In this document: positions 35,761 through 48,619 of the stretch, in pieces
Numbering within the stretch: position 1 is the first letter of the stretch
Layout of the letters: each line of letters begins with the position of its first letter
Assembly: GCA_001442925.1 (NCBI GenBank)
Contig: LDXX01000009.1
Span: 1-64,000, forward strand
Length of the DNA stretch: 64,000 nucleotides
Source: Candidatus Kryptonium thompsonii
GTDB lineage: Bacteria; Bacteroidota; Ignavibacteria; Kryptoniales; Kryptoniaceae
Direction of reading: 5' to 3'
Made by a program: the position numbers and the translations under genes
Notes under the pieces: generated by a model
Seen by the model: only the letters and a program-made list of their open reading frames with translations
Databases searched by the model: none
Told to the model about the DNA's origin: nothing

Positions 35761-37140
35761 TTATCTCGCTTTTCCGGAAATATTTACAGTTGCAGAACCA
35801 TTTGGGCCAGTTGTGGAGATACGAATAAGAATAGGCCTTTGCGTAGTATCAGCCGTTGTATCTTGAATTGCGAATGAAAACCTTGTCCAACTTCTGTCCC
35901 TTGTATCTGGCAGAGTTATATTAAGATCTCCCAACGCCCTTACATCTTTGCCATCAATTGAAACTGTAATTGTAGTTCCACCAGCAAGCGGATTTCCATT
36001 TTGATCGCTCACTGTATAATTAAAAACTTGAGAACCCAAATTAGGAATATCAAATGTTATCGGCTCAATTGAGATCTGTGGTATACCTGAGAAAAGAACG
36101 ATCGTCTCAGCTTTTATAGTATTTTGATTCTCATCAGCTGTTGTAGCTGTTATAACTGCGTAACCAGGCCCAAGGATTGGATGAACAGGCCTTGGTTCAG
36201 CTGAAATCAAATTAACACTTCCCTGTCCCCTATCATCTGTTAAAACCGAACCCTCAATTATTCCACCCGTGGTTGTAAAATAAACAGCCGTGCCGGGCTT
36301 TACGGGATTTCCATATTTATCTCCAACATATGCAGTTATTTTATTTGTAAGACCAAAAATGTTATATCCCGGAAAGTTTAATTTTTCAGGTGCGATACTA
36401 AAATGCGCTGAGTCAGGCAGTCCTCCATGAATTACTATCACGACAGGAAGAGATCTTATAACTTTCGTTCCAATGAAAGACTCAGCAACAATTTGAACGA
36501 CACCAGCTTTCGTCCCACTTACAATGTTAACAGTTACTCTACCCTTACTATCCGTCCTCGCCTTTGGCGGATATACAAATTCCCCACCGCCTGGACCCGA
36601 GCCTATTTTGAAATTAACCTCGACGGAATGCGCTAAATCAACCGGTTTACCACTTGAATCTTGAACTTCAAAAACCATTTGTGCTGTTTCAACGGAACCA
36701 CTACCTTTGACACCTATATTTTTAGAGCTTTGTGATACAAGAACTATGCTCGCCGGCTCACCGCTTGTTGGTACCTCAGATACAACTCGCTGTAACATGA
36801 AAGCTGGAACTTCAACAACTCGTCCTGGAACAACCAAAACATTGATAGTATCCGGATCGTAGCCCTCTTTAAATGCCACCAATTGAACTTCTATTTCACT
36901 CTCAATTTCAAATTGAAACTCATATTTACCCAATGAATCAGTATAAGCTATTAATGTCGGCGTTATCCCAAGAACTCGTACAACTGCATTTTGTAAAGGG
37001 GCATTTGTTGCCGACTCAAGCACTTGCCCTTTTAATGTAACGGTCTTCAATTGCTTTTCCGCCTCTGGTTCCACTGCTTTTTTGCAGCCAACCATAATTA
37101 ATGAAAGTAAAGCAATAAAAATAAAAACTTTTTTCAACAT
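35761..37140 (-). CDS. Lipoprotein with carboxypeptidase-regulatory and Ig-like domains
   Basis: A 459-residue protein with a lipoprotein signal (LIMVGCKK, Cys at about 19). A carboxypeptidase-regulatory-like domain (about 34-115, LKGQVLESATNAPLQNAVV) is followed by two bacterial Ig-like (invasin/Big_1-type) domains (about 130-240 and 245-350, with DSSGKPVDLAHSVEVNF and DKYGNPVKPGTAVYFTT) and a last beta-rich domain. It follows the secretin gene by 13 nt. A role in assembling or anchoring the secretin, or as an adhesin, is inferred only from its place in the pilus operon. Confidence 0.7.
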   Translation of the reverse strand: MLKKVFIFIALLSLIMVGCKKAVEPEAEKQLKTVTLKGQVLESATNAPLQNAVVRVLGITPTLIAYTDSLGKYEFQFEIESEIEVQLVAFKEGYDPDTINVLVVPGRVVEVPAFMLQRVVSEVPTSGEPASIVLVSQSSKNIGVKGSGSVETAQMVFEVQDSSGKPVDLAHSVEVNFKIGSGPGGGEFVYPPKARTDSKGRVTVNIVSGTKAGVVQIVAESFIGTKVIRSLPVVIVIHGGLPDSAHFSIAPEKLNFPGYNIFGLTNKITAYVGDKYGNPVKPGTAVYFTTTGGIIEGSVLTDDRGQGSVNLISAEPRPVHPILGPGYAVITATTADENQNTIKAETIVLFSGIPQISIEPITFDIPNLGSQVFNYTVSDQNGNPLAGGTTITVSIDGKDVRALGDLNITLPDTRDRSWTRFSFAIQDTTADTTQRPILIRISTTGPNGSATVNISGKAR

Positions 37141-37153
37141 TTAAATTCAAAAT

Positions 37154-38371
37154 TTATTTTTTTAGCTGTTTCTTATAATTCTCAAGAGCTTTCAAAAATT
37201 TCTCTCTACCTTCTTTTAAAGTTGGTACTTCTCCAACCTTTAAGCTCATTTCCTTTAACCTTTCAGCAAGGCTTGGTAAAATCTCGGCTTTCAAAAGTAT
37301 TATCAATTCCTTTTTTGCCACAGTTTTAACATCAAACCCAAACAGATACCTTAAACCAAAAAACCACCATGGCAAATCTTTCAAAAGCGGAACCCCTTCA
37401 CGAGTCGTTCTTTCTTCATTTATGTAAAGACCTCCGATTATGGTTTCTTCTCCATCAAGAAGTAAAATCTTAGTTTGGGCTGACGATTTATTTATTGTTA
37501 TCTGCGGAGCTACACCCGCCACATTGCTTCTTTCAATGTTAAGTTCAAGCGAAATAAAGTAAATTGTATCAAACTTTATAACTTCAGGTTTAACTCTAAT
37601 TATTGAACCAGTTGATATGAACTGCGTGATTGCATTTCCAGCGAAATCCCTTACAGTAGTTGAAACGTCGCTCCCAACCTGAATTTGGCCCTGCTCTCCA
37701 GATCTGACTACAATTCTGGGGTTAGCAACGACCTCACCTATTTGTTGTGATTCAAGCGTTTTAAAAACAGCCACTAGACTTCCAAAGTCAAGATCCGGAG
37801 TGACATCAATCGTAAATAAACCCGTTTTACCCTCACCTGCTGACATAGTCACACCAACATTTACTCCCTTCCCACGGAAGAAATCCCAGCTAAAACCGTA
37901 TTGCTTTAACTTAGCTGCGTCAGCCTCAAAAAATACAGCCGAAATCATAACCTCACGGGTCTCAAACTGAACCTTTGCTTTTTCTTCTTCCGTTGGAGCA
38001 GTTGGGGTTGGTATCCCCGTTACCTCAGTAAGGGGGACAATCTTTATATAATCAGCGTATTCCTCATACCAAAGCTTATTTACCCTTAAAATTAACTCAA
38101 GAGCATCAAGCCAATGCATCCTATCAATGTCAACCCCAATCGGTATTGTCCTTGCCTCTGGGTCAATTATAACCTTACCAAGAAACTTTTTACTTATGTC
38201 ATTAAAAATTTGAAGAGCTTGATTAAATGGCATCGTCCTTGACATTGAAACTATCTCCTCGGGAGCAACATAAGCTCTTCTCAACTCTCGGGGGCGACCT
38301 CCGATTTGTGAAAGAGCCAAACCTGTTAAAAGTTCAAAAAGAAGTAAAAAAACAAAAATCTTTAGTTTCAT
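37154..38371 (-). CDS. Short PilQ/GspD-type secretin
   Basis: A 405-residue outer-membrane secretin with a signal peptide (about 1-22). It has one N-terminal secretin/TonB short-N-like domain (about 50-115, PIGVDIDRMHWLDALELIL) and the conserved C-terminal secretin domain (about 150-380) with VVANPRIVVRSGEQGQIQVG, GSIIRVKPEVI and LLDGEETIIGGLYINEE. Secretins form the pore through which the pilus leaves. It is much shorter than typical PilQ, with no AMIN domains, so it may rely on other proteins for peptidoglycan contact. A GAGGTGAT site precedes the ATG. Order after the PilO-PilP fusion matches the classical pilMNOPQ order. Confidence 0.85.
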   Translation of the reverse strand: MKLKIFVFLLLFELLTGLALSQIGGRPRELRRAYVAPEEIVSMSRTMPFNQALQIFNDISKKFLGKVIIDPEARTIPIGVDIDRMHWLDALELILRVNKLWYEEYADYIKIVPLTEVTGIPTPTAPTEEEKAKVQFETREVMISAVFFEADAAKLKQYGFSWDFFRGKGVNVGVTMSAGEGKTGLFTIDVTPDLDFGSLVAVFKTLESQQIGEVVANPRIVVRSGEQGQIQVGSDVSTTVRDFAGNAITQFISTGSIIRVKPEVIKFDTIYFISLELNIERSNVAGVAPQITINKSSAQTKILLLDGEETIIGGLYINEERTTREGVPLLKDLPWWFFGLRYLFGFDVKTVAKKELIILLKAEILPSLAERLKEMSLKVGEVPTLKEGREKFLKALENYKKQLKK

Positions 38372-38383
38372 ATCACCTCTCTA

Positions 38384-39265
38384 TTATTTTTGTTGCTCAA
38401 ACCTGAGTTTCAACACAAACTTTTCCACTATGCCTGCTTTGTTAAGCGTAAATTCAACTTGATTTTTATCAATATCAATTTTCGTCACATAACCAAGGTA
38501 AACTTCATCCCCCTCTCTTAAAACATGAATCTTTCCGGTGTGATCAGCAATAAATGCCCTCCCGGGTATCACTGCTTTCAAATCAGCTCTTTCAACTTCA
38601 AGTAAACCCCTTGTATTAGGTGGCAGTTCTCTGTAAATATACGGTGCAAAGGGATTTTTGACTTCCTCAACAACTACATCCCCAAGAGTTCTTTTTATTG
38701 GGGGCAAATCTTTAACCTCAGCATAAAGGGCGTGAACTTCCATCTGAAACGGAACCACAATTTTAAATCTTTTCGTCTCCTCATCCCTTGTTTCAACGCC
38801 ACGAAGATCAAGCCGTGCAATCCTGTAAATCTGTGGACCTCGCTCAAGATACCAAATGAATTTATAAATATTTTCAAATGAGGCTTCACCCTTTATATTG
38901 TAAATATTGTACGCATACTTCTGCGCCTTTTTACTGCCCATATATAGCATATCAAATTTAACAAAGCCAGCATAATTTAAAATTGAATTCAGATATGAAT
39001 AAGTCATCGCGGGTGTGACATCCGGAACTATCTGTTTATCAAGCTGTGCTAATTTTTCCTGCTCTTCTTTAATCTGCTTTTGCAAATTGTAAAGTTCAAC
39101 CTGCAATCCAGCAAGAGTATTTATCTGTTGTTCAGTGTTTCGAATTTCAGCCTTAGCTTCATTTATCTTTTTCGGATAAGAATAAACAATAAAATACGCT
39201 CCAACCGCAATAATTATAACAAGAAATGCAAGGAGTATGAGTGTATTTCTAGTTTTATATGGCAA
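38384..39265 (-). CDS. PilO-PilP fusion, pilus alignment complex
   Basis: A 293-residue inner-membrane protein. An N-terminal transmembrane helix (about 8-28), a coiled coil (about 33-80) and a ferredoxin-like periplasmic domain (about 85-185) match PilO. After a linker, residues about 203-290 look like PilP: NPFAPYI, then LKAVIPGRAFIADHTGKIHV and GDEVYLGYVTKIDI. PilP is normally a separate lipoprotein that contacts the secretin. The start is TTG with a GAGGTGAAAA ribosome binding site. It lies between the PilM-PilN fusion and the secretin, exactly where pilO and pilP would be. The PilP assignment rests on pattern and position. Confidence 0.75.
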   Translation of the reverse strand: MPYKTRNTLILLAFLVIIIAVGAYFIVYSYPKKINEAKAEIRNTEQQINTLAGLQVELYNLQKQIKEEQEKLAQLDKQIVPDVTPAMTYSYLNSILNYAGFVKFDMLYMGSKKAQKYAYNIYNIKGEASFENIYKFIWYLERGPQIYRIARLDLRGVETRDEETKRFKIVVPFQMEVHALYAEVKDLPPIKRTLGDVVVEEVKNPFAPYIYRELPPNTRGLLEVERADLKAVIPGRAFIADHTGKIHVLREGDEVYLGYVTKIDIDKNQVEFTLNKAGIVEKFVLKLRFEQQK

Positions 39266-39281
39266 TTTTCACCTCAAACTT

Positions 39282-40886
39282 TTATTTTTTAATCTCCTTG
39301 CTTTGTTCAGGCACTACAGATGCTTTTATTTCAAATTGATAAACTGTTCTTCCCCTTATTTCCTGCACCTGAACTTGCATTAATGTTGCATTTCCAAGGG
39401 CGTTTGAAAATCTTGGAATCCTGTTCCTATAAAGCGAATAACCCCTAATTGTGACCGTCTTCGGATCAGATGCCCCTATATCAGTGATCCAAATCCTTCC
39501 AACCCTTTGAGCTTCCATTGCAATCTTGTTCAAGAACTTACTCCATATATCGGTATTAACTCGCATTGAATCGAGAACCCCAAAGGTTGCTTTATAATAA
39601 GCTAACTTTTGCCTTGCGAAATCCACTTGCTGCTGCAATGTCTGAAGCTCTGCAAGTTCAGATTTTTTCCTTTGAAGCTCGGTTCGAGTTTCCAAAAGCG
39701 TTCGATTAAGTTGTGCTATTTTTGTTGTCACTTGAAAAGTAAGAATAGGAATTAAAAGTAAAAATAACCACCCAAGAATTCCAAGTTTAAAAACCTTCTG
39801 TCCTTCCCTGATTTCAAACGGGGTTAAATCAATCGCATAAAGTTCTTTATTTTTTATCTCAAGTGCTCTCCAAGCTGAACCAATCGCAACCGCGACTCTG
39901 GGTAAATTTTCCAAAAGTAAAGGATCTGAACCATTCGGAGATAAATTGGGCAATTTTATATACTCAATTTTAACATCCTCTGGAAACATTTGCTCTAGAA
40001 CTTCTTTAACGCCAGCAGATTGCGCCTCGCCAGCAAGAATTATATTGTTTATCAACGGTAACCCAAGATTATCTTGCTCAAGTATTAACCTGCTATAAAT
40101 TGTGTTTGCAATATTGTATGAATCAATTCCTTCACCAATAAGAGGCGATATGTGATAAAGTTCGTCACCCTTCATAAAAATTAATCTGCTAAATTCATGC
40201 CCAATGTAAACTATAACAGTAATTGAATTTGGTGGGAATTTATAGTTTAACTTGACAAGGTTCGCAAGGGATATCTCGGGACTTTCAATAAACGAGATTT
40301 TAGGAATTCTTCCTCCAATTGATTTCTTAATGTTATCAAGCAGATCAAGCAAAACAATTCTTAAATCTCGAACAATCGCAAGGACAGAGCCATCGGGAAA
40401 TTCAATGTAATTTACCGCATCTGGTTTAAAGGGTTCACCAGATCTCCCCTTTGATATCTCCTCAATTATCTTCGCTTTAAGTTTATCCTTCTTCAAGCCC
40501 CAATTTGATTCAAAAGCTGCATAATAGACATAGGGTTCAGGGACTGAAATGCCGAGCTTATATTTTCGTTTTGGATATTTACTCAAAACCCCAATAAGAA
40601 TTGATGCGTTGTCCCCTTGACCCGTTTCAGTTAAAAGTAAATCTGGGGTTGATGCTTCCGATGTTATATCTATCGGCGTTAACTCAGAGATAGATCTCGG
40701 CTCAATTTGTTCAACTATTCGCGCTCCGGCTGACGCTGTTTCCAACTTTGAGGCAAGATTAACTATCTGGGCATCAACAAATCTCACCTTTTTCCCCGAT
40801 TTCGCAAGACAAGCAACTTGCAAAGATAAACCGTCAACAAAAATCCCAACAGCAAGTTTTCCTGAAAACTTTTTGTCTCTCGCCAT
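39282..40886 (-). CDS. PilM-PilN fusion, pilus inner-membrane platform
   Basis: A 534-residue protein. Residues 1-345 have an actin-like PilM layout, starting with VGIFVDGLSLQVACL and ending with ENLPRVAVAIGSAWRAL. Residues 351-363 (AIDLTPFEIREGQ) match the short cytoplasmic peptide of PilN that binds PilM. Then come a transmembrane helix (about 366-385), a coiled coil (about 386-430) and a PilN-like periplasmic domain to the end. PilM and PilN normally meet through this peptide; here they are covalently joined. It is followed by the PilO-PilP fusion. Confidence 0.82.
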   Translation of the reverse strand: MARDKKFSGKLAVGIFVDGLSLQVACLAKSGKKVRFVDAQIVNLASKLETASAGARIVEQIEPRSISELTPIDITSEASTPDLLLTETGQGDNASILIGVLSKYPKRKYKLGISVPEPYVYYAAFESNWGLKKDKLKAKIIEEISKGRSGEPFKPDAVNYIEFPDGSVLAIVRDLRIVLLDLLDNIKKSIGGRIPKISFIESPEISLANLVKLNYKFPPNSITVIVYIGHEFSRLIFMKGDELYHISPLIGEGIDSYNIANTIYSRLILEQDNLGLPLINNIILAGEAQSAGVKEVLEQMFPEDVKIEYIKLPNLSPNGSDPLLLENLPRVAVAIGSAWRALEIKNKELYAIDLTPFEIREGQKVFKLGILGWLFLLLIPILTFQVTTKIAQLNRTLLETRTELQRKKSELAELQTLQQQVDFARQKLAYYKATFGVLDSMRVNTDIWSKFLNKIAMEAQRVGRIWITDIGASDPKTVTIRGYSLYRNRIPRFSNALGNATLMQVQVQEIRGRTVYQFEIKASVVPEQSKEIKK

Positions 40887-40906: not shown

Positions 40907-42151
40907 TTAAGCTGCCTGCAAAAGTTGCTGCATTCTTCGTTTATTATTTGCAAAATTCATGGCCGTTTCAAGTGAAATTTTCCGCTCAAGATAAAGCCGT
41001 CTTAAATCCTGCTCCATCGTAATCATACCGTATTCAGCTCCTTCTGCTATCATTTGGTAAATCTCACCAGTGTTGTTATTCTTTATCGCAGCCCTTATTG
41101 ATGGCGTCATGACCATAACCTCTTTAGCAAGAACTCTCTTCCCGTCCAGGCTCGGAACAAGTTTCTGTGAAATTACACACCTTAAAATATCAGCCAACCT
41201 GTTTCTTACCCTCTCCTGTTCGATCGGTGGGACCTCCCCAATTATTCTATCAATGCTTTCAACAGCCGAAGATGTGTGAAGCGTCGATAGAACTTTATGT
41301 CCACTGTCAGCAACCTCAAGCGCAGCCATTATCGTATCTGGATCCCTCATCTCACCAATTATAATTATGTCCGGGTCCTGACGCAATGCTTCTATTGTTC
41401 CCTGCTTAAAAGACATCGTATCCCTTCCAACTTCCCTATGCCGAATTATACAACGCTTTGACTCGTGAACATACTCAATGGGGGATGCAATTATAATTAT
41501 ATGCGCATCAACCGTTCTATTGTTAAGATCAACTATCGCATCGAGCGTTGTGCTTTTTCCTGACCCTGTTATCCCTGTGACGAGAATTAAACCCTCCTTG
41601 GTATATTGCAAACTTAACATTCTTGTCACATTTGGATGGAAACCATAACTTTCATACGGTCTTATCTGGGTATTGATCGCTCTCATATTCAAAGCAAGAT
41701 CATCTAAATCAAAATAAGCATCTGCACGATAGCGATATATGACACCATTTTCATCTTTAAGCGTATACGAAAAATCAAGGTTCCTATTTTCATAAAGATA
41801 TTCTCTTTGTCTTTCCATCAACAAACTTTGAATTAAAATGTTAAATTCATCCAATTCATAAACCCCAAACTCCGGGATTGGCTTCTTCACACCATGAATT
41901 CTAAGCCAAACCATTTTTTTCGAACCCCATCCTCCAAGATCTATATCCGAGGCTTCAACCTCTCTCATTCTAATGAGAAACATATTGATCAAATTTCTCA
42001 AAAGAAGCTTTTGTTCCTCGGGCATTTTCTTTATTATTTCATTGCCAATATACATTTGCTTCTCGATACTAAAAAGCGTAACCGGAATTTTCTTTGCAAG
42101 CGAACTCAACAATTCTTTTGCTTCCTTCACTAACTGCGGATTTACAGGCAT
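40907..42151 (-). CDS. PilT/PilU-like pilus retraction ATPase
   Basis: A 414-residue secretion ATPase with an N-terminal domain of about 170 residues, Walker A GITGSGKSTTLDAI, Asp box and Walker B (DPDIIIIGEMRDPDT) and His box (LSTLHTSSAVESIDR). Close similarity to PilT over the motor core suggests a retraction motor, so the pilus could drive twitching or DNA uptake. The C-terminal AIRNLIRE motif of PilT corresponds to a diverged SIRAAIKNNN here. The N-terminal extension is longer than in PilT (about 350 residues in all). Confidence 0.88.
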   Translation of the reverse strand: MPVNPQLVKEAKELLSSLAKKIPVTLFSIEKQMYIGNEIIKKMPEEQKLLLRNLINMFLIRMREVEASDIDLGGWGSKKMVWLRIHGVKKPIPEFGVYELDEFNILIQSLLMERQREYLYENRNLDFSYTLKDENGVIYRYRADAYFDLDDLALNMRAINTQIRPYESYGFHPNVTRMLSLQYTKEGLILVTGITGSGKSTTLDAIVDLNNRTVDAHIIIIASPIEYVHESKRCIIRHREVGRDTMSFKQGTIEALRQDPDIIIIGEMRDPDTIMAALEVADSGHKVLSTLHTSSAVESIDRIIGEVPPIEQERVRNRLADILRCVISQKLVPSLDGKRVLAKEVMVMTPSIRAAIKNNNTGEIYQMIAEGAEYGMITMEQDLRRLYLERKISLETAMNFANNKRRMQQLLQAA

Positions 42152-42177: not shown

Positions 42178-43533
42178 CTATTCCCACCATGAAACCAACC
42201 TTAACTGTCTTATGCCGGGAAAGCTCACAAGAGGATAATATGGCGGTGCTTTATCTCTGAAGCGGGGATCATATCTGTATCTCTTATTAAATCCATTTTG
42301 AATTATTCCACTACCACCTGAAAACTGTCCCACCGGTCCTCTTCCTTCCTGAACTATACCTCCAGTTAAATAAATTGTCCCTGATGGTGGTCTTTTATCC
42401 CAGTTTTCAGCAATGAAACTTTTATCATTTGAACCCCCATCATAAGCCATAATAGCAGCTTGAATAACTACATCATTTTGATTCGGGTCGCTATCAGCTA
42501 TGATAACATTTTTATAAGAGACAAGCCCAAGAAAATCATCAGAGTTTGGATTTACATTTGGATCATCAGCATATTTTAAATCATCCCAAATTCTTATGTT
42601 TCCATCAGCAAGGATGGTAAGTTGACCGTTCAATGTACCTTCAACAACAACTTCATTTTTAACCCAAATAACACCAGTTGAACTTAAGCTTGAAATATTA
42701 GCTACTGTATCAGGCGGTGACAACTGAGGAACTCGGCGTTGCCTTAAGTATTGTCCACTCCCTATTGTCTCAACCGTCCACCCAACTATATCTCTTTTCA
42801 CAACTTTACCATTGGACAGGAATTTAAGATAAACTGGGTTATTAAAAACTCCTCCACCGTTTACTGCAGCTGTCTTAGTTCTCGTCATATCAACCGGTAT
42901 TTCAGCCTGTATTCCAACTTCCCATCCACCATAAAACTTTGCTTTGTTTCTATTTGAAGTTGGCTGCGGGTTGATCCCAGCATAAGCAGTAACTTTATCA
43001 TAAAACACGGGCGAGCCATATGTGTGCAAAACTCCATTTGTATGAACAGGACCCCAAACGGTATCACCGGTTATCCAGTAAACTGGCGCACCATTGTAAA
43101 ATTCGGTTCCAGTAAGCCAAAAATATCTTGAAGCAGGTGTATTAGGACCGCTCGAATATATAAAGTAAGCAAAAGCAGAATCTTCTATTTTATAAGGTTT
43201 TTTATATCTGGCATAATAAGTATCAACAAAAGCATAACCCCATGCTTTAACGCTTAACCTTACAAGCGAATCTGGAACAACTGGATATATGCGAACAGTT
43301 GCAGTGCAATTATTCATTACGACATTGAAAGTTGCATTAGTTAATGTATCTTTCCAAACTTTACTTGCACCAATATTCATTGCACTTACAGCCGTTTCAT
43401 GAACAAGCGTCTTTGAATAGTAATAGTTAAAACTGTCCGTTGCCGAAATCACAGCCCGAGTTAAGCGAAGCTGATAAACTGAAAATATCGAAATAAAGCC
43501 TATTAATATCAACAAAGATGTTTTACCAAACAT
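42178..43533 (-). CDS. Pilus-associated protein with N-terminal pilin-like helix
   Basis: A 451-residue protein starting with a hydrophobic helix (MFGKTSLLILIGFISIFSVY) like PilX/PilY-type accessory or minor pilins, followed by a large beta-rich part. That part includes ITGDTVWGPVHTNGVLHTYG and VEGTLNGQLTILADGNI, which resembles the DUF4900 family. There is no KGFTLIE-like cleavage site. Two genes upstream encode smaller pilin-like proteins, so this may be a tip or minor component of the pilus. Function not established. Confidence 0.6.
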   Translation of the reverse strand: MFGKTSLLILIGFISIFSVYQLRLTRAVISATDSFNYYYSKTLVHETAVSAMNIGASKVWKDTLTNATFNVVMNNCTATVRIYPVVPDSLVRLSVKAWGYAFVDTYYARYKKPYKIEDSAFAYFIYSSGPNTPASRYFWLTGTEFYNGAPVYWITGDTVWGPVHTNGVLHTYGSPVFYDKVTAYAGINPQPTSNRNKAKFYGGWEVGIQAEIPVDMTRTKTAAVNGGGVFNNPVYLKFLSNGKVVKRDIVGWTVETIGSGQYLRQRRVPQLSPPDTVANISSLSSTGVIWVKNEVVVEGTLNGQLTILADGNIRIWDDLKYADDPNVNPNSDDFLGLVSYKNVIIADSDPNQNDVVIQAAIMAYDGGSNDKSFIAENWDKRPPSGTIYLTGGIVQEGRGPVGQFSGGSGIIQNGFNKRYRYDPRFRDKAPPYYPLVSFPGIRQLRLVSWWE

Positions 43534-43540
43534 AATCTTT

Positions 43541-44233
43541 TTATCTTCTTAGATTTTTAGATACTAATCTCGTCTGTCTCCAGAAAGAAGTCCTCAACAA
43601 CCGCCTTAATTCTCTTTTTCTAAACTCCTGATCTTGAATACTTGAAACTTCCTTTTTGACAAGTTCAGGTGATAAAACAACCCTTGGGTTAAACATAGTA
43701 AGAGTTACCTCAACCATTTTTGTAGCAATTAATTCCATTCCCGGATCAACTGGATTTCCTATTTGATCAAGGTACCTAAAAACTCGTGCATTCCCTATTC
43801 TACCTACATCTGTCATGCGAACACCTTCACCCGTGATTTTCAAAATCCTCGTAACTTTATACATCCGCAAAATTGTGTCCCCGTAATCAATAGTTTCTGC
43901 AAGCGATATTACATATTCAATTGTATCTGGTACATTATCTTTATGGGGTATTACATGATCAAAATAGTCAAACTCACGATTTAAGTGCGCTATAAACTTA
44001 ATATGACCTGGTTCAGCTTTAAAAAGAATTTGAGAGCCCTCCGGAATACCATAACCCATTTTTCTCAGGTCATATTCAATTACTCCAGATGTATTTGCAA
44101 GATTTATTTGAGTGATGGCATCTGAATTATAATTAAGAAATTCACGCGTTCCAGTATCAGTGACAGTTATAGTAATAAGTAGAATAGCTCCTCCTATAAT
44201 TGTAGCCATTATGTAGTCAAGCAGTGAACTCAT
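43541..44233 (-). CDS. PilW-like minor pilin candidate
   Basis: About 230 residues with an N-terminal hydrophobic helix (MSSLLDYIMATIIGGAILLI) followed by an amphipathic stretch and a globular domain, similar in length and outline to PilW/GspJ-type minor pilins. ATG at 44233 preferred over the TTG one codon upstream. The GF-x4-E prepilin site is not present, although an Asp sits near the start of the hydrophobic helix. Identified by context rather than by motif. Confidence 0.5.
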   Translation of the reverse strand: MSSLLDYIMATIIGGAILLITITVTDTGTREFLNYNSDAITQINLANTSGVIEYDLRKMGYGIPEGSQILFKAEPGHIKFIAHLNREFDYFDHVIPHKDNVPDTIEYVISLAETIDYGDTILRMYKVTRILKITGEGVRMTDVGRIGNARVFRYLDQIGNPVDPGMELIATKMVEVTLTMFNPRVVLSPELVKKEVSSIQDQEFRKRELRRLLRTSFWRQTRLVSKNLRR

Positions 44234-44248
44234 CAAAATTAGCTAAAT

Positions 44249-44800
44249 TTAATTATAAAACCAGTAACTATAAACGAAACTTATTTTAATCGTATCTCTA
44301 ACTTTGCCAGATGCTGTCTCCTTGTAAATTAAAGGTGGGTCATATATATCCGATATAAATACCGTCATCCTTTTATGAAATGTCTTATACGAAACTGGAA
44401 TAACCCTGTTACCCGAGAGATCAACATACTCAACCTTAAAACTAACTTTATATATAACGCTGCTTCTCCCTGTGTCAATTTTGGATATACTATTATAATC
44501 ATCAAAATCATCTATCTCCATGGCGCCAACCATTGTTGTATCATCTGGGTCAAGCCCAAGCGTTGAAGAGAAAGTATTTGGATCAGTTTTAGCGGTGTTG
44601 TTCGTATCAGCAACCGCTTCATCAAAATAATATTGTGATGCTTGTTCAATATAAGATGTAGCAATGGAGAGCGCTTCAAGTCTATATCTATTTTGAGCAA
44701 GTGAAACATCGTGACTTGAGAGACCACGATTTACATTTAAGACAGCAAGCGAGAGAAGCGCCAACGCTAAAATAGTTATGAGTGTTTGTCCAGTCGTCAT
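44249..44800 (-). CDS. Small pilin-like protein
   Basis: A 183-residue protein starting MTTGQTLITILALALLSLAV, a hydrophobic helix followed by a helical spine (about 25-60) and a beta-rich domain, like minor pilins of the PilV/GspI type. Gly4 could be the residue before a cleavage site, giving QTLITILA, but Glu5 is missing. Note that Gly-Gln before the helix also occurs in the major pilin. It lies between the PilB-like and PilW-like genes. Confidence 0.5.
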   Translation of the reverse strand: MTTGQTLITILALALLSLAVLNVNRGLSSHDVSLAQNRYRLEALSIATSYIEQASQYYFDEAVADTNNTAKTDPNTFSSTLGLDPDDTTMVGAMEIDDFDDYNSISKIDTGRSSVIYKVSFKVEYVDLSGNRVIPVSYKTFHKRMTVFISDIYDPPLIYKETASGKVRDTIKISFVYSYWFYN

Positions 44801-44818: not shown

Positions 44819-46606
44819 TTAATCTTCGGTTGTGGCATGTGCAACCTCTTCAAGCGTTGTAAGCCCTTGTTTTATCCTCTCTCTCCCAGCTGCTCTCAAA
44901 GTTAGCATTCCATCCTTTATAGCCTGCTCCCTTATTGCTTCCTCGTCAATATCTTTCCCAGTTTTGAAAATTAATCTGCGAATTTCTCTCGTGAAATAAA
45001 GCGCTTCATGTATGGCGATCCTTCCCTTATATCCACCATGGCATTGATCACATCCGACCGCTTCGTAGAAAACAGTATTTTTAATTTCTTCCTCCGTAAA
45101 TCCCAAACTCAAAGGAATCGCCGGGTCAAGATCCTCTATTGGACGCTTACATTTATCACACAACTTACGGATCAATCTTTGTGCGATTATAATGTTTATC
45201 GCATATGCGATAAGAAATGTCTCAATTCCCATTTTATATAATCTCGATATGGCACTTGGGGCATCATTTGTATGCAGGGTTGAAAATGTTAAGTGGCCTG
45301 TATTTGCAAGTTTAATTGCTATCTCCGCTGTTTCCTTATCTCTTATCTCACCAACCATAACAACATCCGGATCATGACGCAAAATCGCCCTCAATGCTTG
45401 TTCAAAATTCATCTTCGGACCAATCTTCAACTGCCTCGCTCCTGGAATTATATACTCAACTGGATCTTCAACTGTCAAGACGTTTATCTCCGGCTTTATA
45501 ATATAATGTAAAGCAGCCATCAATGTTGTTGATTTACCGCTTCCCGTAGGACCCGTAACAATAACCATCCCTTGTGGTTTTGAAATCGCTTTAATGAAGA
45601 ATTCTTTTGCCTTACCTTGGAAACCAAGTTTATCGAGATCAGTTATAACCTTTCTATCATCAAGGACACGAATGACAATGCTCTCAAACTTATATTGAAA
45701 TTCCCTCCCAACTATTGGAAGGATCGAAACCCTATATCTTATCATATGCCCATCAACTTTTCTCTGGATAAATCCATCTTGTGCCATCTCCCGCTCGAAT
45801 CTATCAACATTCTTTGACCTATCTTTTACAACTGCTGCAATTGCTTCAGGTCTTATACCCTCCTGAACATGCCAAAGTCTGAGCTTTCCATCTATTCTAA
45901 AGTGAATTTCAGTTGTCCTTGAATCCCTAGGAATTATGTGAATATCGCTCGCCCCTTTTCTCACCGCTTCAACCAACATTCCCTCGACAAGATTAACCAA
46001 CATACTCTTGTTTATCTCCGCTTCAAGTGCAGCTTCATCAAGTGTTTCCTCTTCAAGTTCCTCCTCAGTTATTTCAAGTTTTGATTCCTCAAGAACTTTT
46101 AAAAACTCATTTTCAGGAGGAAAAACTTTATCAAAAAGATTTTGCATATCCTTCAACCTCACATAGCACACCTCATATCTCTTCGCACCAAGCGCCCTTG
46201 CAATTAAAGGGATAGCTCTACTCGTGGGATCAGCTGAAATTAAAATAAGTTTATCAGGCCTTTGCTCATCATATTTCAAAGGTAAAATCTTCTCCGATCG
46301 CATCTGTTCTTTAAGTGCTTGAGGAAGCGGCTCAACAAGTTTCTTTATAAAATCAATTCTATTCTTGTCAATGTTCTCATCCGCAAGATAAATCTCCCTG
46401 AACCCATAAAGATTCGCAACTTCTTTAAATACACTGTCGTGATCAATCCCAAAATCAGACACAAGTATCTGCGCCAAGCTTCGCCTTGTCTTTGAATCCT
46501 CTTGTTCTTTAATCTTTAAAGCTCTGTCAAGTGTTTCATAATCTACCACACCCTTTTTCAAAAGCGTATATCCCAATTTATCCGTAATATCCACTCCAAC
46601 AGTCAT
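44819..46606 (-). CDS. pilB: PilB/GspE-type pilus assembly ATPase
   Basis: A 595-residue ATPase with an N-terminal MshEN/T2SSE_N domain (about 1-165), a linker with an acidic stretch (about 180-200), and the motor: Walker A GPTGSGKSTTLMAAL, Asp box, Walker B DPDVVMVGEIRDKETAEIA and His box FSTLHTNDAPSAISR. A tetracysteine zinc site (CDKCK and CDQCHGG) is typical of PilB. It powers pilus extension. GAGGTGAT precedes the ATG. It follows PilC and is followed by the minor pilin-like genes. Confidence 0.95.
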   Translation of the reverse strand: MTVGVDITDKLGYTLLKKGVVDYETLDRALKIKEQEDSKTRRSLAQILVSDFGIDHDSVFKEVANLYGFREIYLADENIDKNRIDFIKKLVEPLPQALKEQMRSEKILPLKYDEQRPDKLILISADPTSRAIPLIARALGAKRYEVCYVRLKDMQNLFDKVFPPENEFLKVLEESKLEITEEELEEETLDEAALEAEINKSMLVNLVEGMLVEAVRKGASDIHIIPRDSRTTEIHFRIDGKLRLWHVQEGIRPEAIAAVVKDRSKNVDRFEREMAQDGFIQRKVDGHMIRYRVSILPIVGREFQYKFESIVIRVLDDRKVITDLDKLGFQGKAKEFFIKAISKPQGMVIVTGPTGSGKSTTLMAALHYIIKPEINVLTVEDPVEYIIPGARQLKIGPKMNFEQALRAILRHDPDVVMVGEIRDKETAEIAIKLANTGHLTFSTLHTNDAPSAISRLYKMGIETFLIAYAINIIIAQRLIRKLCDKCKRPIEDLDPAIPLSLGFTEEEIKNTVFYEAVGCDQCHGGYKGRIAIHEALYFTREIRRLIFKTGKDIDEEAIREQAIKDGMLTLRAAGRERIKQGLTTLEEVAHATTED

Positions 46607-46625: not shown

Positions 46626-47990
46626 TTAAAAAATTTGAAATGGAAGTATAATCGTATATGGCGTCTTAGGTTTAACCATTGCCGTCTCAGACGATACAAG
46701 TGTAAGAAGTGTCATCACAATCATTATTATCATCGCAATCATAAGCTGAATAAAGTCAACGGCATTCTTAAGTTTATAAACTGTTTCCTTTTCGTAATAA
46801 TTTGCGATTTGAAGTGCTGTTTGCTTAACTGTTCCAGTTTCAGCACCAGAGTGAAACCTTGCAAGTGCTGTCTTTGTGAAAACCCCCGTCGCTTCAAATG
46901 CTTCCGTAAGCCCCTTACCTTGACTTAACATCATCGGAATGGCTATAGTTTTTATCTGATGCTCCATATACTTATTCCCGCACGCCTCTGCTGCCAAGCG
47001 AATTGCATCAATGTTCTCCCCCGAACCTGTGTATAAAGCGTAAAAAACCCTGCAAAAAATTTCAATAGTTGTCTTGTGAATCAGTGGTCCAAGAACAGGA
47101 AGTTTTATAATATATTTGTCGCGCAAAAATTGACCTTTTGGAGTTCTAATAAAGTAAATAAAAGCAACCGAAATTAAAACCAAGCCAAGGAGGATGAAAG
47201 TTATATTCTCAGTTAAGAAATAACTCAACTTCAAAGTTGCTGCTGTCATCGGCGGAAGCTCAGTTCCAAGCTTGAGAAAAAGTTCAGCGGTCTCAGGGAA
47301 AATATAAGCAACATAAAACACAACAGCGATAAACAAAACAATTAATGTAAAAACAGGCATTATCAAAGCACTTTTGAGATTTTTCTTAAATTCAGCATTC
47401 CTTTCAAGAAATTTAGCCGTGCTCTCGTAAATATCAGCCATATTTCCACTCTTTGACGCAAGCCCAAGCATTCGAGCTGTAAATTTACCAAGCACTCTCT
47501 CCTGCTTTATAAACGCCTCTTCACTATCCTTACCCTGGCGTAAATCATTATTTATCTCTCGCAATGCTTCTCTTAAAGTTGGGTGTTGAACATCATTTAT
47601 CAAAAGCTGGAGAATCTCATTATAAGGAAGCTTTTCCCTTAACAAATCAGCGCTGACCCGAACAAACGTTACAATTTCCGTATCTGGTGGTTTAAACTTA
47701 AAATCCAAAACTTTGGGTTGTATGCTTACAACCTTATAACCAAGTTTTTCAAGCGCCTGTCTTACCTCTTCTTTCGTAAATGCTTTCTGTTCACCTGTTA
47801 TAGGCTTTTCACTATCACGCTGAACTTTGTAAATAAAAGTCCTACGCTTTTGAATCTTCGTTATCTTAATCTTCCTCTGATCAGCTAAGGCTTTAATCTT
47901 TTTCTTCGCCTCGGAAAGATTATCAGCGGTGATAATACCTTGGACAGGACGCCCCGTTAATGTTAACCCTTCAAAACGATAATCGGGCAA
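46626..47990 (-). CDS. pilC: PilC/GspF-type inner-membrane platform protein
   Basis: About 454 residues from a TTG at 47990 (reading PDYRFEGLTLTGRP). This start has GGGAGGTGG about 7 nt upstream. The frame is open to an ATG at 48050, but that stretch is the terminator-like hairpin and its T tract. The N-terminal region holds two copies of the GspF cap pattern (YRFEGLTLTGRPVQGIITAD and FIYKVQRDSEKPITGEQKAF). Two T2SSF domains follow (about 100-230 and 300-430) with paired transmembrane helices; motifs include GKFTARMLGLASKSGNM and ALARFHSGAETGTV. It anchors the assembly and retraction motors in the inner membrane. Confidence 0.93.
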   Translation of the reverse strand: MPDYRFEGLTLTGRPVQGIITADNLSEAKKKIKALADQRKIKITKIQKRRTFIYKVQRDSEKPITGEQKAFTKEEVRQALEKLGYKVVSIQPKVLDFKFKPPDTEIVTFVRVSADLLREKLPYNEILQLLINDVQHPTLREALREINNDLRQGKDSEEAFIKQERVLGKFTARMLGLASKSGNMADIYESTAKFLERNAEFKKNLKSALIMPVFTLIVLFIAVVFYVAYIFPETAELFLKLGTELPPMTAATLKLSYFLTENITFILLGLVLISVAFIYFIRTPKGQFLRDKYIIKLPVLGPLIHKTTIEIFCRVFYALYTGSGENIDAIRLAAEACGNKYMEHQIKTIAIPMMLSQGKGLTEAFEATGVFTKTALARFHSGAETGTVKQTALQIANYYEKETVYKLKNAVDFIQLMIAMIIMIVMTLLTLVSSETAMVKPKTPYTIILPFQIF

Positions 47991-47996
47991 CCTGAA

Positions 47997-48005
47997 CCAC
48001 CTCCC
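47997..48005 (-). promoter_or_regulatory. Strong ribosome binding site fixing the pilC TTG start
   Basis: GGGAGGTGG on the minus strand lies about 7 nt before the TTG at 47990. No comparable site precedes the ATG at 48050, which instead lies at the edge of a hairpin stem. Confidence 0.75.
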
Positions 48006-48050
48006 AAAAAATAAATTAAAAATCAATGGGGATGCATCAAGCATCCCCAT
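48006..48050 (-). terminator. Terminator/attenuator between pilin and pilC
   Basis: A perfect 10-bp stem (ATGGGGATGC at 48026-48035 with GCATCCCCAT at 48041-48050, 5-nt loop) is followed on the minus strand by a T-rich tract ending in TTTTTT. It begins 10 nt after the pilin stop. Partial termination here would make pilin mRNA more abundant than mRNA for the machinery genes, as is common in pilus operons. Confidence 0.78.
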
Positions 48051-48060
48051 ATTATCTTAA

Positions 48061-48510
48061 TTATTGCTGTGTCCAGCCCTGCAATTTCCCATAGCCTTTA
48101 GTGGCATCCGTTGTCTGCAAACTCGTTGCAGTACCTTGATAAATCCTGCTTTTATCAGCATCTACACAGTCAATTGCAGCAACATACGCTGTTCCAACTT
48201 TTTCTTTACCAAGGGCATGAATAACAATTGCCTGCTCACCTGTTAAAATTTCAACCCTGTAGCTCCCATTCGCATTACCAGTATCAAGCGGGCTTAGAGC
48301 GAAGTTAGCGAAGCTATTTCCACCACCACCCAATTCAACAGGTGTTCTGTAATATCTTTGTGCCTTTGAAGCAAGATTTGCAAGGTCACTTGCAACTGCG
48401 CTCCTATTGGCGTCAACTGCGCTGCTCTTGAACATTGAAATACCAACAGCAATCGCAATTCCAACTATGATGACGCCAAGGACGATGAGTAAAAGTTGCT
48501 GCTGACCCAT
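48061..48510 (-). CDS. Major type IV pilin-like protein without a canonical prepilin leader
   Basis: A 149-residue protein starting MGQQQLLLIVLGVIIVGIAI, continuing with a helical spine (about 25-55: RSAVASDLANLASKAQRYYR) and a Gly-rich, beta-rich head with one cysteine (AIDCVDADK). Size and layout match a type IVa/IVb pilin, and it is first in the pilus operon with its own promoter. Unlike normal prepilins there is no basic leader, no GF-type cleavage site and no Glu5. The start is fixed by AGGAGGT 8 nt upstream. Processing after Gly2, leaving a Gln at +1, or no processing at all, are both conceivable. Confidence 0.75.
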   Translation of the reverse strand: MGQQQLLLIVLGVIIVGIAIAVGISMFKSSAVDANRSAVASDLANLASKAQRYYRTPVELGGGGNSFANFALSPLDTGNANGSYRVEILTGEQAIVIHALGKEKVGTAYVAAIDCVDADKSRIYQGTATSLQTTDATKGYGKLQGWTQQ

Positions 48511-48551
48511 ATTAATTACCTCCTGAATTTAATTTTAGTTTTTGATTTTTA

Positions 48552-48588: not shown

Positions 48589-48619
48589 CAAAGATAACCT
48601 TATATTTTGTAAAAGTCAA
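48589..48619 (-). promoter_or_regulatory. Promoter of the type IV pilus operon
   Basis: On the minus strand TTGACT (48614-48619) and TATCTT (48591-48596) are 17 nt apart. The second box continues as TATCTTTG, which also fits the TAnnTTTG box of Bacteroidota promoters. It leaves a leader of about 70 nt with a hairpin and AGGAGGT before the pilin ATG. The rest of the 266-nt gap upstream (48620-48776) shows no other clear element. Confidence 0.62.

What the first reader, a model, noticed from the sequence alone, without database searches (positions are those of the whole stretch)
48061..48510. Major pilin of a full type IV pilus operon lacks a prepilin leader and Glu5
The gene heads an operon with PilB, PilC, PilT-like, PilMN, PilOP and secretin proteins, yet starts MGQQQLLLIVLGVIIVGIAI. 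AGGAGGT 8 nt before the ATG and a promoter about 70 nt upstream fix the start, so a hidden leader is unlikely. Canonical pilins need a basic leader, Gly before an aromatic residue or Met, and Glu5 for methylation and subunit register. None is present, and no prepilin peptidase gene is in the window. The neighbouring small pilin-like protein (MTTGQTLITIL) also has Gly-Gln before its helix, hinting at a shared non-standard rule: cleavage after a minimal leader, or insertion without cleavage.
Basis: partly seen in the sequence, partly recalled or inferred. Interest (0 to 1): 0.72.

Follow-up and report, generated by a model that had tools for sequence, protein, structure and literature searches.

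The report
Type IV pilus without leader or peptidase
A whole family of bacterial surface-filament machines, spread over the Bacteroidota and related phyla, encodes its pilin building blocks without the cut-off leader that textbook type IV pilins carry; most Bacteroidota genomes examined that have it, this one included, also lack the enzyme that would cut it, so these filaments seem to be built by a rule not yet described.

Summary
The pilin starts MGQQQLLLIVLG at a well-marked start, six codons after an in-frame stop. Among 196 distinct homologues (Bacteroidota, Calditrichota, KSB1, Cloacimonadota, Latescibacterota, Gemmatimonadota) all have a start codon at this residue, usually with a stop a few codons upstream; none has a leader. 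The minor pilins are leaderless too; one is predicted to have the GspI/XcpV fold. The operon PilA-PilC-PilB-minor pilins-PilT-PilMN-PilOP-secretin is conserved.

The 98.5%-complete genome has no prepilin peptidase by four profiles and no canonical pilin. Of 148 Bacteroidota genomes, 55 have the leaderless pilin; 48 of these lack the peptidase, 46 lack canonical pilins as well. The other seven carry the peptidase beside canonical pilins.

Best reading: a type IV filament whose pilins are made already mature. Methionine aminopeptidase probably exposes Gly2, and conserved Gln3-5 probably replaces Glu5. Filament formation and the true N-terminus are untested. [quoted passage not shown] no report of leaderless type IV pilins was found in the open-access library.

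The parts
48061..48510 (-). major pilin (PilA-like), leaderless, MGQQQLLL start
   Evidence: AF2 model with long alpha1 plus 4-strand sheet, top VIA hits are type IV pilins
48518..48524 (-). Shine-Dalgarno AGGAGGT, 7 nt spacer to the ATG
   Evidence: sequence
48591..48619 (-). promoter-like site TTGACT-17-TATCTT (not above chance in the scan)
46626..48050 (-). PilC/GspF inner-membrane platform
   Evidence: PF00482 E 8.9e-31
44819..46606 (-). PilB assembly ATPase with MshEN-like N-terminus
   Evidence: PF00437 E 5e-109; TIGR02538 462 bits, below its equivalog cut-off
44249..44800 (-). minor pilin 1, GspI/XcpV/PilV-like, leaderless (MTTGQTLITIL)
   Evidence: family alignment; AF2 model; top six VIA hits are XcpV/GspI/EpsI, Z 6.7-8.4
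43541..44236 (-). minor pilin 2, probably GspJ/PilW-like, leaderless; start probably the second codon (MSSLLDYIMATIIGG)
   Evidence: position in operon and N-terminal alignment; fold not tested
42178..43533 (-). minor pilin 3, large, probably GspK/PilX-like, leaderless (MFGKTSLLI; relatives MG[KR]xxLLL)
   Evidence: (DUF4900, E 2e-4, below cut-off); fold not tested
40907..42151 (-). PilT-family retraction ATPase
   Evidence: TIGR01420 339.6 bits, over the cut-off of 319.1
39282..40886 (-). PilM-PilN-like fusion
   Evidence: PilN PF05137 E 0.0023 (below cut-off), Amuc_1101 family E 6e-4; synteny
38384..39265 (-). PilO/PilP-like alignment protein
   Evidence: synteny and architecture only
37154..38371 (-). 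PilQ-type secretin
   Evidence: PF00263 E 5e-29, TIGR02515 88 bits
35761..37140 (-). Ig-like-repeat lipoprotein downstream of the secretin; homologues also follow PilQ in several class-level relatives
   Evidence: L062, L064, L066, L067

Best explanation
This is the major pilin of a type IV filament system whose pilins are made already in mature form. Shown: (i) major and minor pilins have no leader; translation starts at, or a few residues before, the hydrophobic alpha1 helix; (ii) this genome and most Bacteroidota genomes with the system have no detectable A24 prepilin peptidase, and where one exists it lies beside canonical N-methyl-type pilins of another system; (iii) the rest of the machine (PilB, PilC, PilT, secretin, minor pilins) is conserved in order. 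Inferred: the alpha1 helix inserts as an uncleaved signal anchor, N-terminus inside, helped by a neutral N-terminus and a net negative stretch after the helix; methionine aminopeptidase removes Met1 of the major pilin (residue 2 is Gly, once Ala), leaving G-Q-Q-Q-LLL; since no basic leader must be cut off, PilB/PilC can extract subunits without PilD; the uncharged Gln3-Gln5 track takes over the packing/register role of Glu5 and the methylated N-terminus; PilT retracts the filament. The minor pilins (one predicted GspI-like, the others GspJ- and GspK-like by position) probably prime the tip.
For: Start fixed by SD and in-frame stop. 196/196 distinct homologues begin at a start codon at the same residue; 167/196 read [M/V/L]GQQQ plus a hydrophobic run, the rest mostly MGTQQ/MGSQQ. 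No A24 peptidase by PF01478, a Bacteroidota PilD profile or a profile that includes short divergent PilDs; no N_methyl pilin. 48 of 55 leaderless-pilin genomes in the Bacteroidota sample lack PilD, 46 lack both, including six single-contig genomes (G003, G030, G073, G112, G124, G132). In the 7 with PilD, a further PilB is present and an N_methyl pilin lies within about 1.5 kb of PilD. PilD goes with N_methyl, not with the leaderless pilin (p 2e-7 and 9e-9; leaderless versus PilD not associated, p 0.13). Operon synteny across phyla. PilB tree separates this system from the canonical one, also in the same genomes. Pilin fold of PilA and minor pilin 1; gapless profile match to Geobacter pilin. 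Charges: residues 2-8 net 0 in 54/54, residues 27-46 mean -1.2; two Balneolaceae paralogues replace Q4-Q5 by K4-E5 or R4-E5.
Against: No experiment shows filaments, or the N-terminus, in any of these organisms. Many relatives in Cloacimonadota, KSB1 and Calditrichota do have a PilD (29 of 50 FCB genomes), so there cleavage after MG cannot be excluded. Some minor pilins start MQ, MH or MW, where Met would probably be kept, so Met removal is not a general rule. Three leaderless-pilin genomes of the FCB set have PilD without a detected N_methyl pilin, and four genomes over the two sets have N_methyl pilins without a detected PilD. Foldseek alone gave no significant match for either model. The Gln-track role rests on conservation plus two variants.
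Confidence: 0.8

Rival explanations
1. Minimal-leader cleavage: an unrecognised, non-A24 peptidase (or PilD where present) cuts after Met-Gly, giving QQQLLL or QQLLL as mature start.
For: Gly2 is almost invariant (195/196), and Gly(-1) is the canonical cleavage site; some phyla with the system do have PilD.
Against: No A24 peptidase in 48 of 55 Bacteroidota genomes with the pilin; minor pilins of the same operons start MQQT, MHVL, MWFI, without Gly, so a Gly rule would not serve them; no extra conserved peptidase gene seen in the operons. Gly2 is also explained by methionine aminopeptidase specificity (established knowledge).
Confidence: 0.12
2. The protein is an anchored, pilin-like component of a machine that builds no surface filament (a periplasmic pseudopilus for secretion or DNA uptake).
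For: Minor pilin 1 resembles GspI of the GspI/J/K tip set of type II secretion; ComEC is present.
Against: A PilT-family retraction ATPase over its curated cut-off, tandem pilin copies in many relatives and MshEN-type PilB point to a dynamic pilus. The leaderless puzzle would be the same for a pseudopilus.
Confidence: 0.12
3. A prepilin peptidase exists but was missed (gap in the assembly, or divergence beyond the profiles).
For: Short divergent PilDs in Bacteroidota escaped PF01478 and were found only by opening the loci and building a tailored profile.
Against: The tailored profile recovers those and still finds none here or in six single-contig genomes with the pilin; and there is no leader to cut.
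Confidence: 0.05
4. A hidden leader: an upstream non-standard start or a frameshift adds a basic leader.
For: Six open codons lie upstream in the window.
Against: Those six codons contain the SD and no basic residue; most relatives have stops 0-8 codons upstream, nine of them directly before the start.
Confidence: 0.01

Closest known systems
Type IVa pilus (PilA/B/C/T/M-Q of Myxococcus, Pseudomonas, Neisseria)
   Same: PilB, PilC, PilT, PilMN/OP-like proteins, secretin, minor pilins; predicted pilin fold; gapless match of alpha1 to Geobacter pilin
   Different: no class III leader, no Glu5 in the major pilin, no prepilin peptidase in most Bacteroidota genomes with it, PilM-N fused, PilB below the equivalog cut-off
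Type II secretion pseudopilus (GspG-K)
   Same: minor pilin 1 predicted with the GspI/XcpV fold; large third minor pilin in the place of GspK
   Different: has PilT; no GspC seen; minor pilins are leaderless; ATPase branch separate from the canonical Bacteroidota type II-like systems
Bacteroidota type II-like system (Cytophaga CHU_3191-3201, PMC5553014)
   Same: same phylum, homologous ATPase and platform
   Different: that system has a short PilD and canonical pilins; ATPases of the kind form a separate branch
Akkermansia Amuc_1098-1102 pilus-like locus
   Same: weak similarity of PilMN to Amuc_1101 and of the secretin to Amuc_1098
   Different: matches far below the family cut-offs; Akkermansia pilin N-termini were not examined
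Archaeal type IV pilins and archaellins
   Same: archaeal pilins also often lack Glu5 (PMC4471445)
   Different: archaeal pilins keep a leader and a peptidase

Membership tests
Type IV filament superfamily | class III signal peptide (hydrophilic leader ending in Gly before the hydrophobic tract) | tested here: not met
Type IV filament superfamily | dedicated A24 prepilin peptidase in the genome | tested here: not met
   absent in 48 of 55 Bacteroidota genomes with the system
Type IV filament superfamily | extension ATPase (PilB/GspE) | tested here: met
   PF00437 E 5e-109
Type IV filament superfamily | inner-membrane platform (PilC/GspF) | tested here: met
   PF00482 E 9e-31
Type IV filament superfamily | pilin fold: long alpha1 plus antiparallel sheet | tested here: met
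   predicted models only: PilE, PilV, PilX Z 8-9; XcpV/GspI Z 7-8; Foldseek not significant (47, 82)
Type IVa pilus | Glu5 in the major pilin | tested here: not met
   54 of 54 without acid at the aligned position (Leu/Val/Ile8); two paralogues have Glu at precursor position 5 next to Lys/Arg
Type IVa pilus | PilT retraction ATPase | tested here: met
   TIGR01420 over cut-off
Type IVa pilus | PilM, PilN, PilO, PilP | tested here: inconclusive
   fused, sub-threshold matches; conserved position
Type IVa pilus | secretin | tested here: met
   PF00263
Type IVa pilus | assembles a retractable surface filament | not testable with these tools
   needs microscopy and genetics
Type II secretion system | canonical pseudopilins with GspO, and GspC | tested here: not met
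   no N_methyl, no A24 in the genome; no GspC match among the operon proteins

The most novel reading that the evidence does not exclude
A superphylum-wide (FCB) class of type IV filaments works without class III signal peptides and without any prepilin peptidase: the pilins are born mature, and a Gln track instead of Glu5 and the methylated N-terminus sets subunit register. Leader cleavage would then not be a universal requirement of type IV filament assembly.
Probability: 0.72. Interest if true: 0.88.

Novelty: new variant of a known kind. Interest (0 to 1): 0.8.

Why it matters
The class III signal peptide and its peptidase are treated as universal, defining parts of type IV filaments (review PMC4471445), and genome surveys look for pilins by that motif. 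[quoted passage not shown] It makes old questions testable: why pilins need processing at all, what Glu5 does, how an unmarked N-terminus is oriented in the membrane, and whether leaderless pilins are ancestral or derived.

Tried and rejected
PF01478 alone was not trusted: genomes with canonical pilins but no hit (families f22, f13 of the sample) were opened and proved to have short divergent PilD-like proteins next to PilB; a profile with these (A3) was then run and still found none here. Hidden leader: rejected. Canonical pilin elsewhere in the genome: none found; the only second relative, G000:C5:101444, is also MGQQQLLL. Plain Foldseek searches gave no significant match; the VIA second look gave pilins first, but its absences prove nothing. 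Solved structures by sequence: only Geobacter pilin at E 0.004-0.02, with one weaker pilin row. Literature searches for leaderless or PilD-free type IV pilins gave nothing on bacteria beyond MSH systems that may borrow a peptidase (PMC6668835), the Melioribacter remark and, for archaea, Nanoarchaeota (PMC4471445); subscription papers and preprints are not covered.

Full report
The observation. The gene at 48510..48061 on the minus strand encodes MGQQQLLLIVLGVIIVGIAIAVGISMFKSS.... The start is firmly placed: AGGAGGT with a 7-nt spacer, and the upstream frame reads stop-IQEVIN-Met. The protein has no basic leader, no Gly-aromatic cleavage site and no Glu5. It heads a row of genes on the same strand: PilC, PilB, three small-to-large proteins with N-terminal hydrophobic helices, a PilT-family ATPase, a PilM/N-like fusion, a PilO/P-like protein and a secretin.

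Is it real beyond this gene? A search of 148 Bacteroidota genomes found the pilin in 55; a scan of a named collection found at least 293 relatives, and the best 80 lie in Ignavibacteria, Kryptoniota, Balneolaceae, Calditrichota, KSB1, Cloacimonadota, Latescibacterota, Gemmatimonadota and a few unplaced or possibly misbinned contigs. I extracted 196 distinct pilin sequences from the fetched loci. In every one the residue before the conserved G-Q-Q-Q (or its variants) is a start codon (183 ATG, 8 TTG, 5 GTG); in most, an in-frame stop lies within a few codons, in nine directly before the start. 148 of 196 read exactly MGQQQLLL; residue 2 is Gly in all but one (Ala). This is not chance and leaves no room for a leader.

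No peptidase. The window's genome (98.5% complete) has no Peptidase_A24 match, and no N_methyl pilin. Because Pfam might miss divergent PilDs, I opened the loci of Bacteroidota genomes that have canonical pilins but no Pfam hit and found short (about 155 aa) PilD-like proteins beside PilB. Profiles built from the long forms (A2) and from long plus short forms (A3) were run over all 148 genomes. They recover the short forms and still find nothing in this genome; A24_N gives only an E of 7. Of the 55 genomes with the leaderless pilin, 48 lack PilD, and 46 lack both PilD and canonical pilins; six of these are single-contig assemblies (G003, G030, G073, G112, G124, G132). The seven with PilD (G014, G019, G116, G065, G077, G139, G143) all have a further PilB and an N_methyl pilin within about 1.5 kb of PilD (pilins read in two of them). 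Within leaderless-pilin genomes PilD is associated with N_methyl pilins (Fisher p 2e-7; in 50 further FCB genomes, partly overlapping the first set, p 9e-9), whereas leaderless pilin and PilD are not associated (p 0.13) (relatedness is not corrected for). So PilD, where present, most likely belongs to something else.

The machine. The order PilA-PilC-PilB-(minor pilins)-PilT-PilMN-PilOP-PilQ is kept across the Bacteroidota and, in part or whole, in the other phyla, often with two to four tandem pilins. A tree of the assembly ATPases puts these (30 rows) apart from the canonical ones (13 rows, 98/94 support), also where both occur in one genome (the support for the leaderless side itself is modest, 77/55, and one row, L064 13783, is a distant PilB-like neighbour on a long branch).

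The pilins. AlphaFold2 gives the major pilin a helix 3-59 and a four-stranded sheet (pLDDT 84). The VIA second look puts type IV pilins in ranks 1-7 (PilE, Shewanella pilin, PilV, PilX, ComZ, PilA; Z 9.0-5.7). The family profile matches Geobacter pilin without gaps, Ile9 on mature position 6 (E 0.005-0.02, marginal), so Leu8 stands where Glu5 would be. Minor pilins 2 and 3 are assigned GspJ-like and GspK-like from position, size and N-terminus only. All three families are leaderless. Minor pilin 2 is instructive: with Met removed, the window's SSLLDYIMATIIGG and relatives HVLWDHTNAMVIGG and WFIFDNLNALIVGG have an acid at position 5 and Gly at 14, the register of canonical mature pilins; other relatives (MGSQVIIDLIGSIVLFG) have two more residues. 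These genes look like mature pilins with a start codon put in front.

How it most likely works. Shown: no leader, no A24 peptidase in most such Bacteroidota genomes, complete conserved machine; predicted: pilin fold. Inferred: the helix inserts as an uncleaved anchor. The N-terminus carries no net charge in 54 of 54, and the 20 residues after the helix average -1.2, which mildly favours an N-in orientation without a basic leader. Gly2 makes Met1 a good substrate for methionine aminopeptidase (established specificity), so the likely mature start is G-Q-Q-Q-L-L-L; minor pilins starting MQ, MH or MW would keep Met. Since nothing basic has to be cut away before the helix can leave the membrane, PilD is dispensable. 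In canonical pili Glu5 mutants do not form homopolymers (reviewed in PMC4471445), so something must replace it. The near-invariant Q3-Q5 is the obvious candidate, and two Balneolaceae paralogues have K4-E5 or R4-E5 instead of Q4-Q5, as if positions 4 and 5 of neighbours pair. That last step is the least certain.

Against what is known. The superfamily is defined by the class III signal peptide and its peptidase (PMC4471445; PMC6668835). Those two features were tested and not met, while ATPase, platform, PilT, secretin and predicted pilin fold are met. I therefore call it a variant of the type IV filament, not a textbook type IVa pilus. In the library, MSH loci without their own peptidase may use one from another system in the genome (PMC6668835); Nanoarchaeota were noted without a detectable one (PMC4471445). 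The Melioribacter roseus paper reported pilT, pilQ, pilB and pilC but neither pilA nor pilD (PMC3534657); the family found here is a plausible answer (a Melioribacteraceae locus, L127, has the operon), though M. roseus itself was not examined. No description of leaderless type IV pilins was found, but only open-access papers were searched.

Limits. Everything is sequence and prediction. Neither filaments nor N-termini have been seen.

Noticed in passing
L060 7445-7828 (G000:C5:101444-101755): A second leaderless pilin of the same genome stands alone directly after an LptF/LptG-like gene pair, away from the pil operon; MGTQQ pilins also lie away from the operon in G039 (L218 6634-8085).
   Followed up: partly
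L075 5935-7449, L089 12733-14178: In some Rhodothermia-like and Balneolaceae operons a Wzy_C O-antigen-ligase-type protein sits beside the pilin, hinting at O-glycosylation of the pilin.
   Followed up: partly
L089 8595-9101, L070 8993-9514, L074 9276-9764: A small protein between PilB and PilT in Balneolaceae and relatives; one member has a cyclic-nucleotide-binding domain, a possible regulator of pilus dynamics.
   Followed up: partly
L088 3227-3601, L090 11553-11924: Second-copy pilins with MGNRELLL and MANKEIII: Q4-Q5 replaced by a basic-acid pair.
   Followed up: partly
L213 8507-8944, L215 6010-6471, L216 2477-2944: Short PilD-like proteins beside canonical PilB with GSAD or GAAD in place of the catalytic GxGD motif (alignment A3); they may be inactive or use a changed motif.
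   Followed up: no
window 35761-37140: Ig-like-repeat lipoprotein downstream of the secretin, with homologues in the same place in four relatives and on the opposite strand near the operon in Balneolaceae; possibly a surface adhesin of the system.
   Followed up: no
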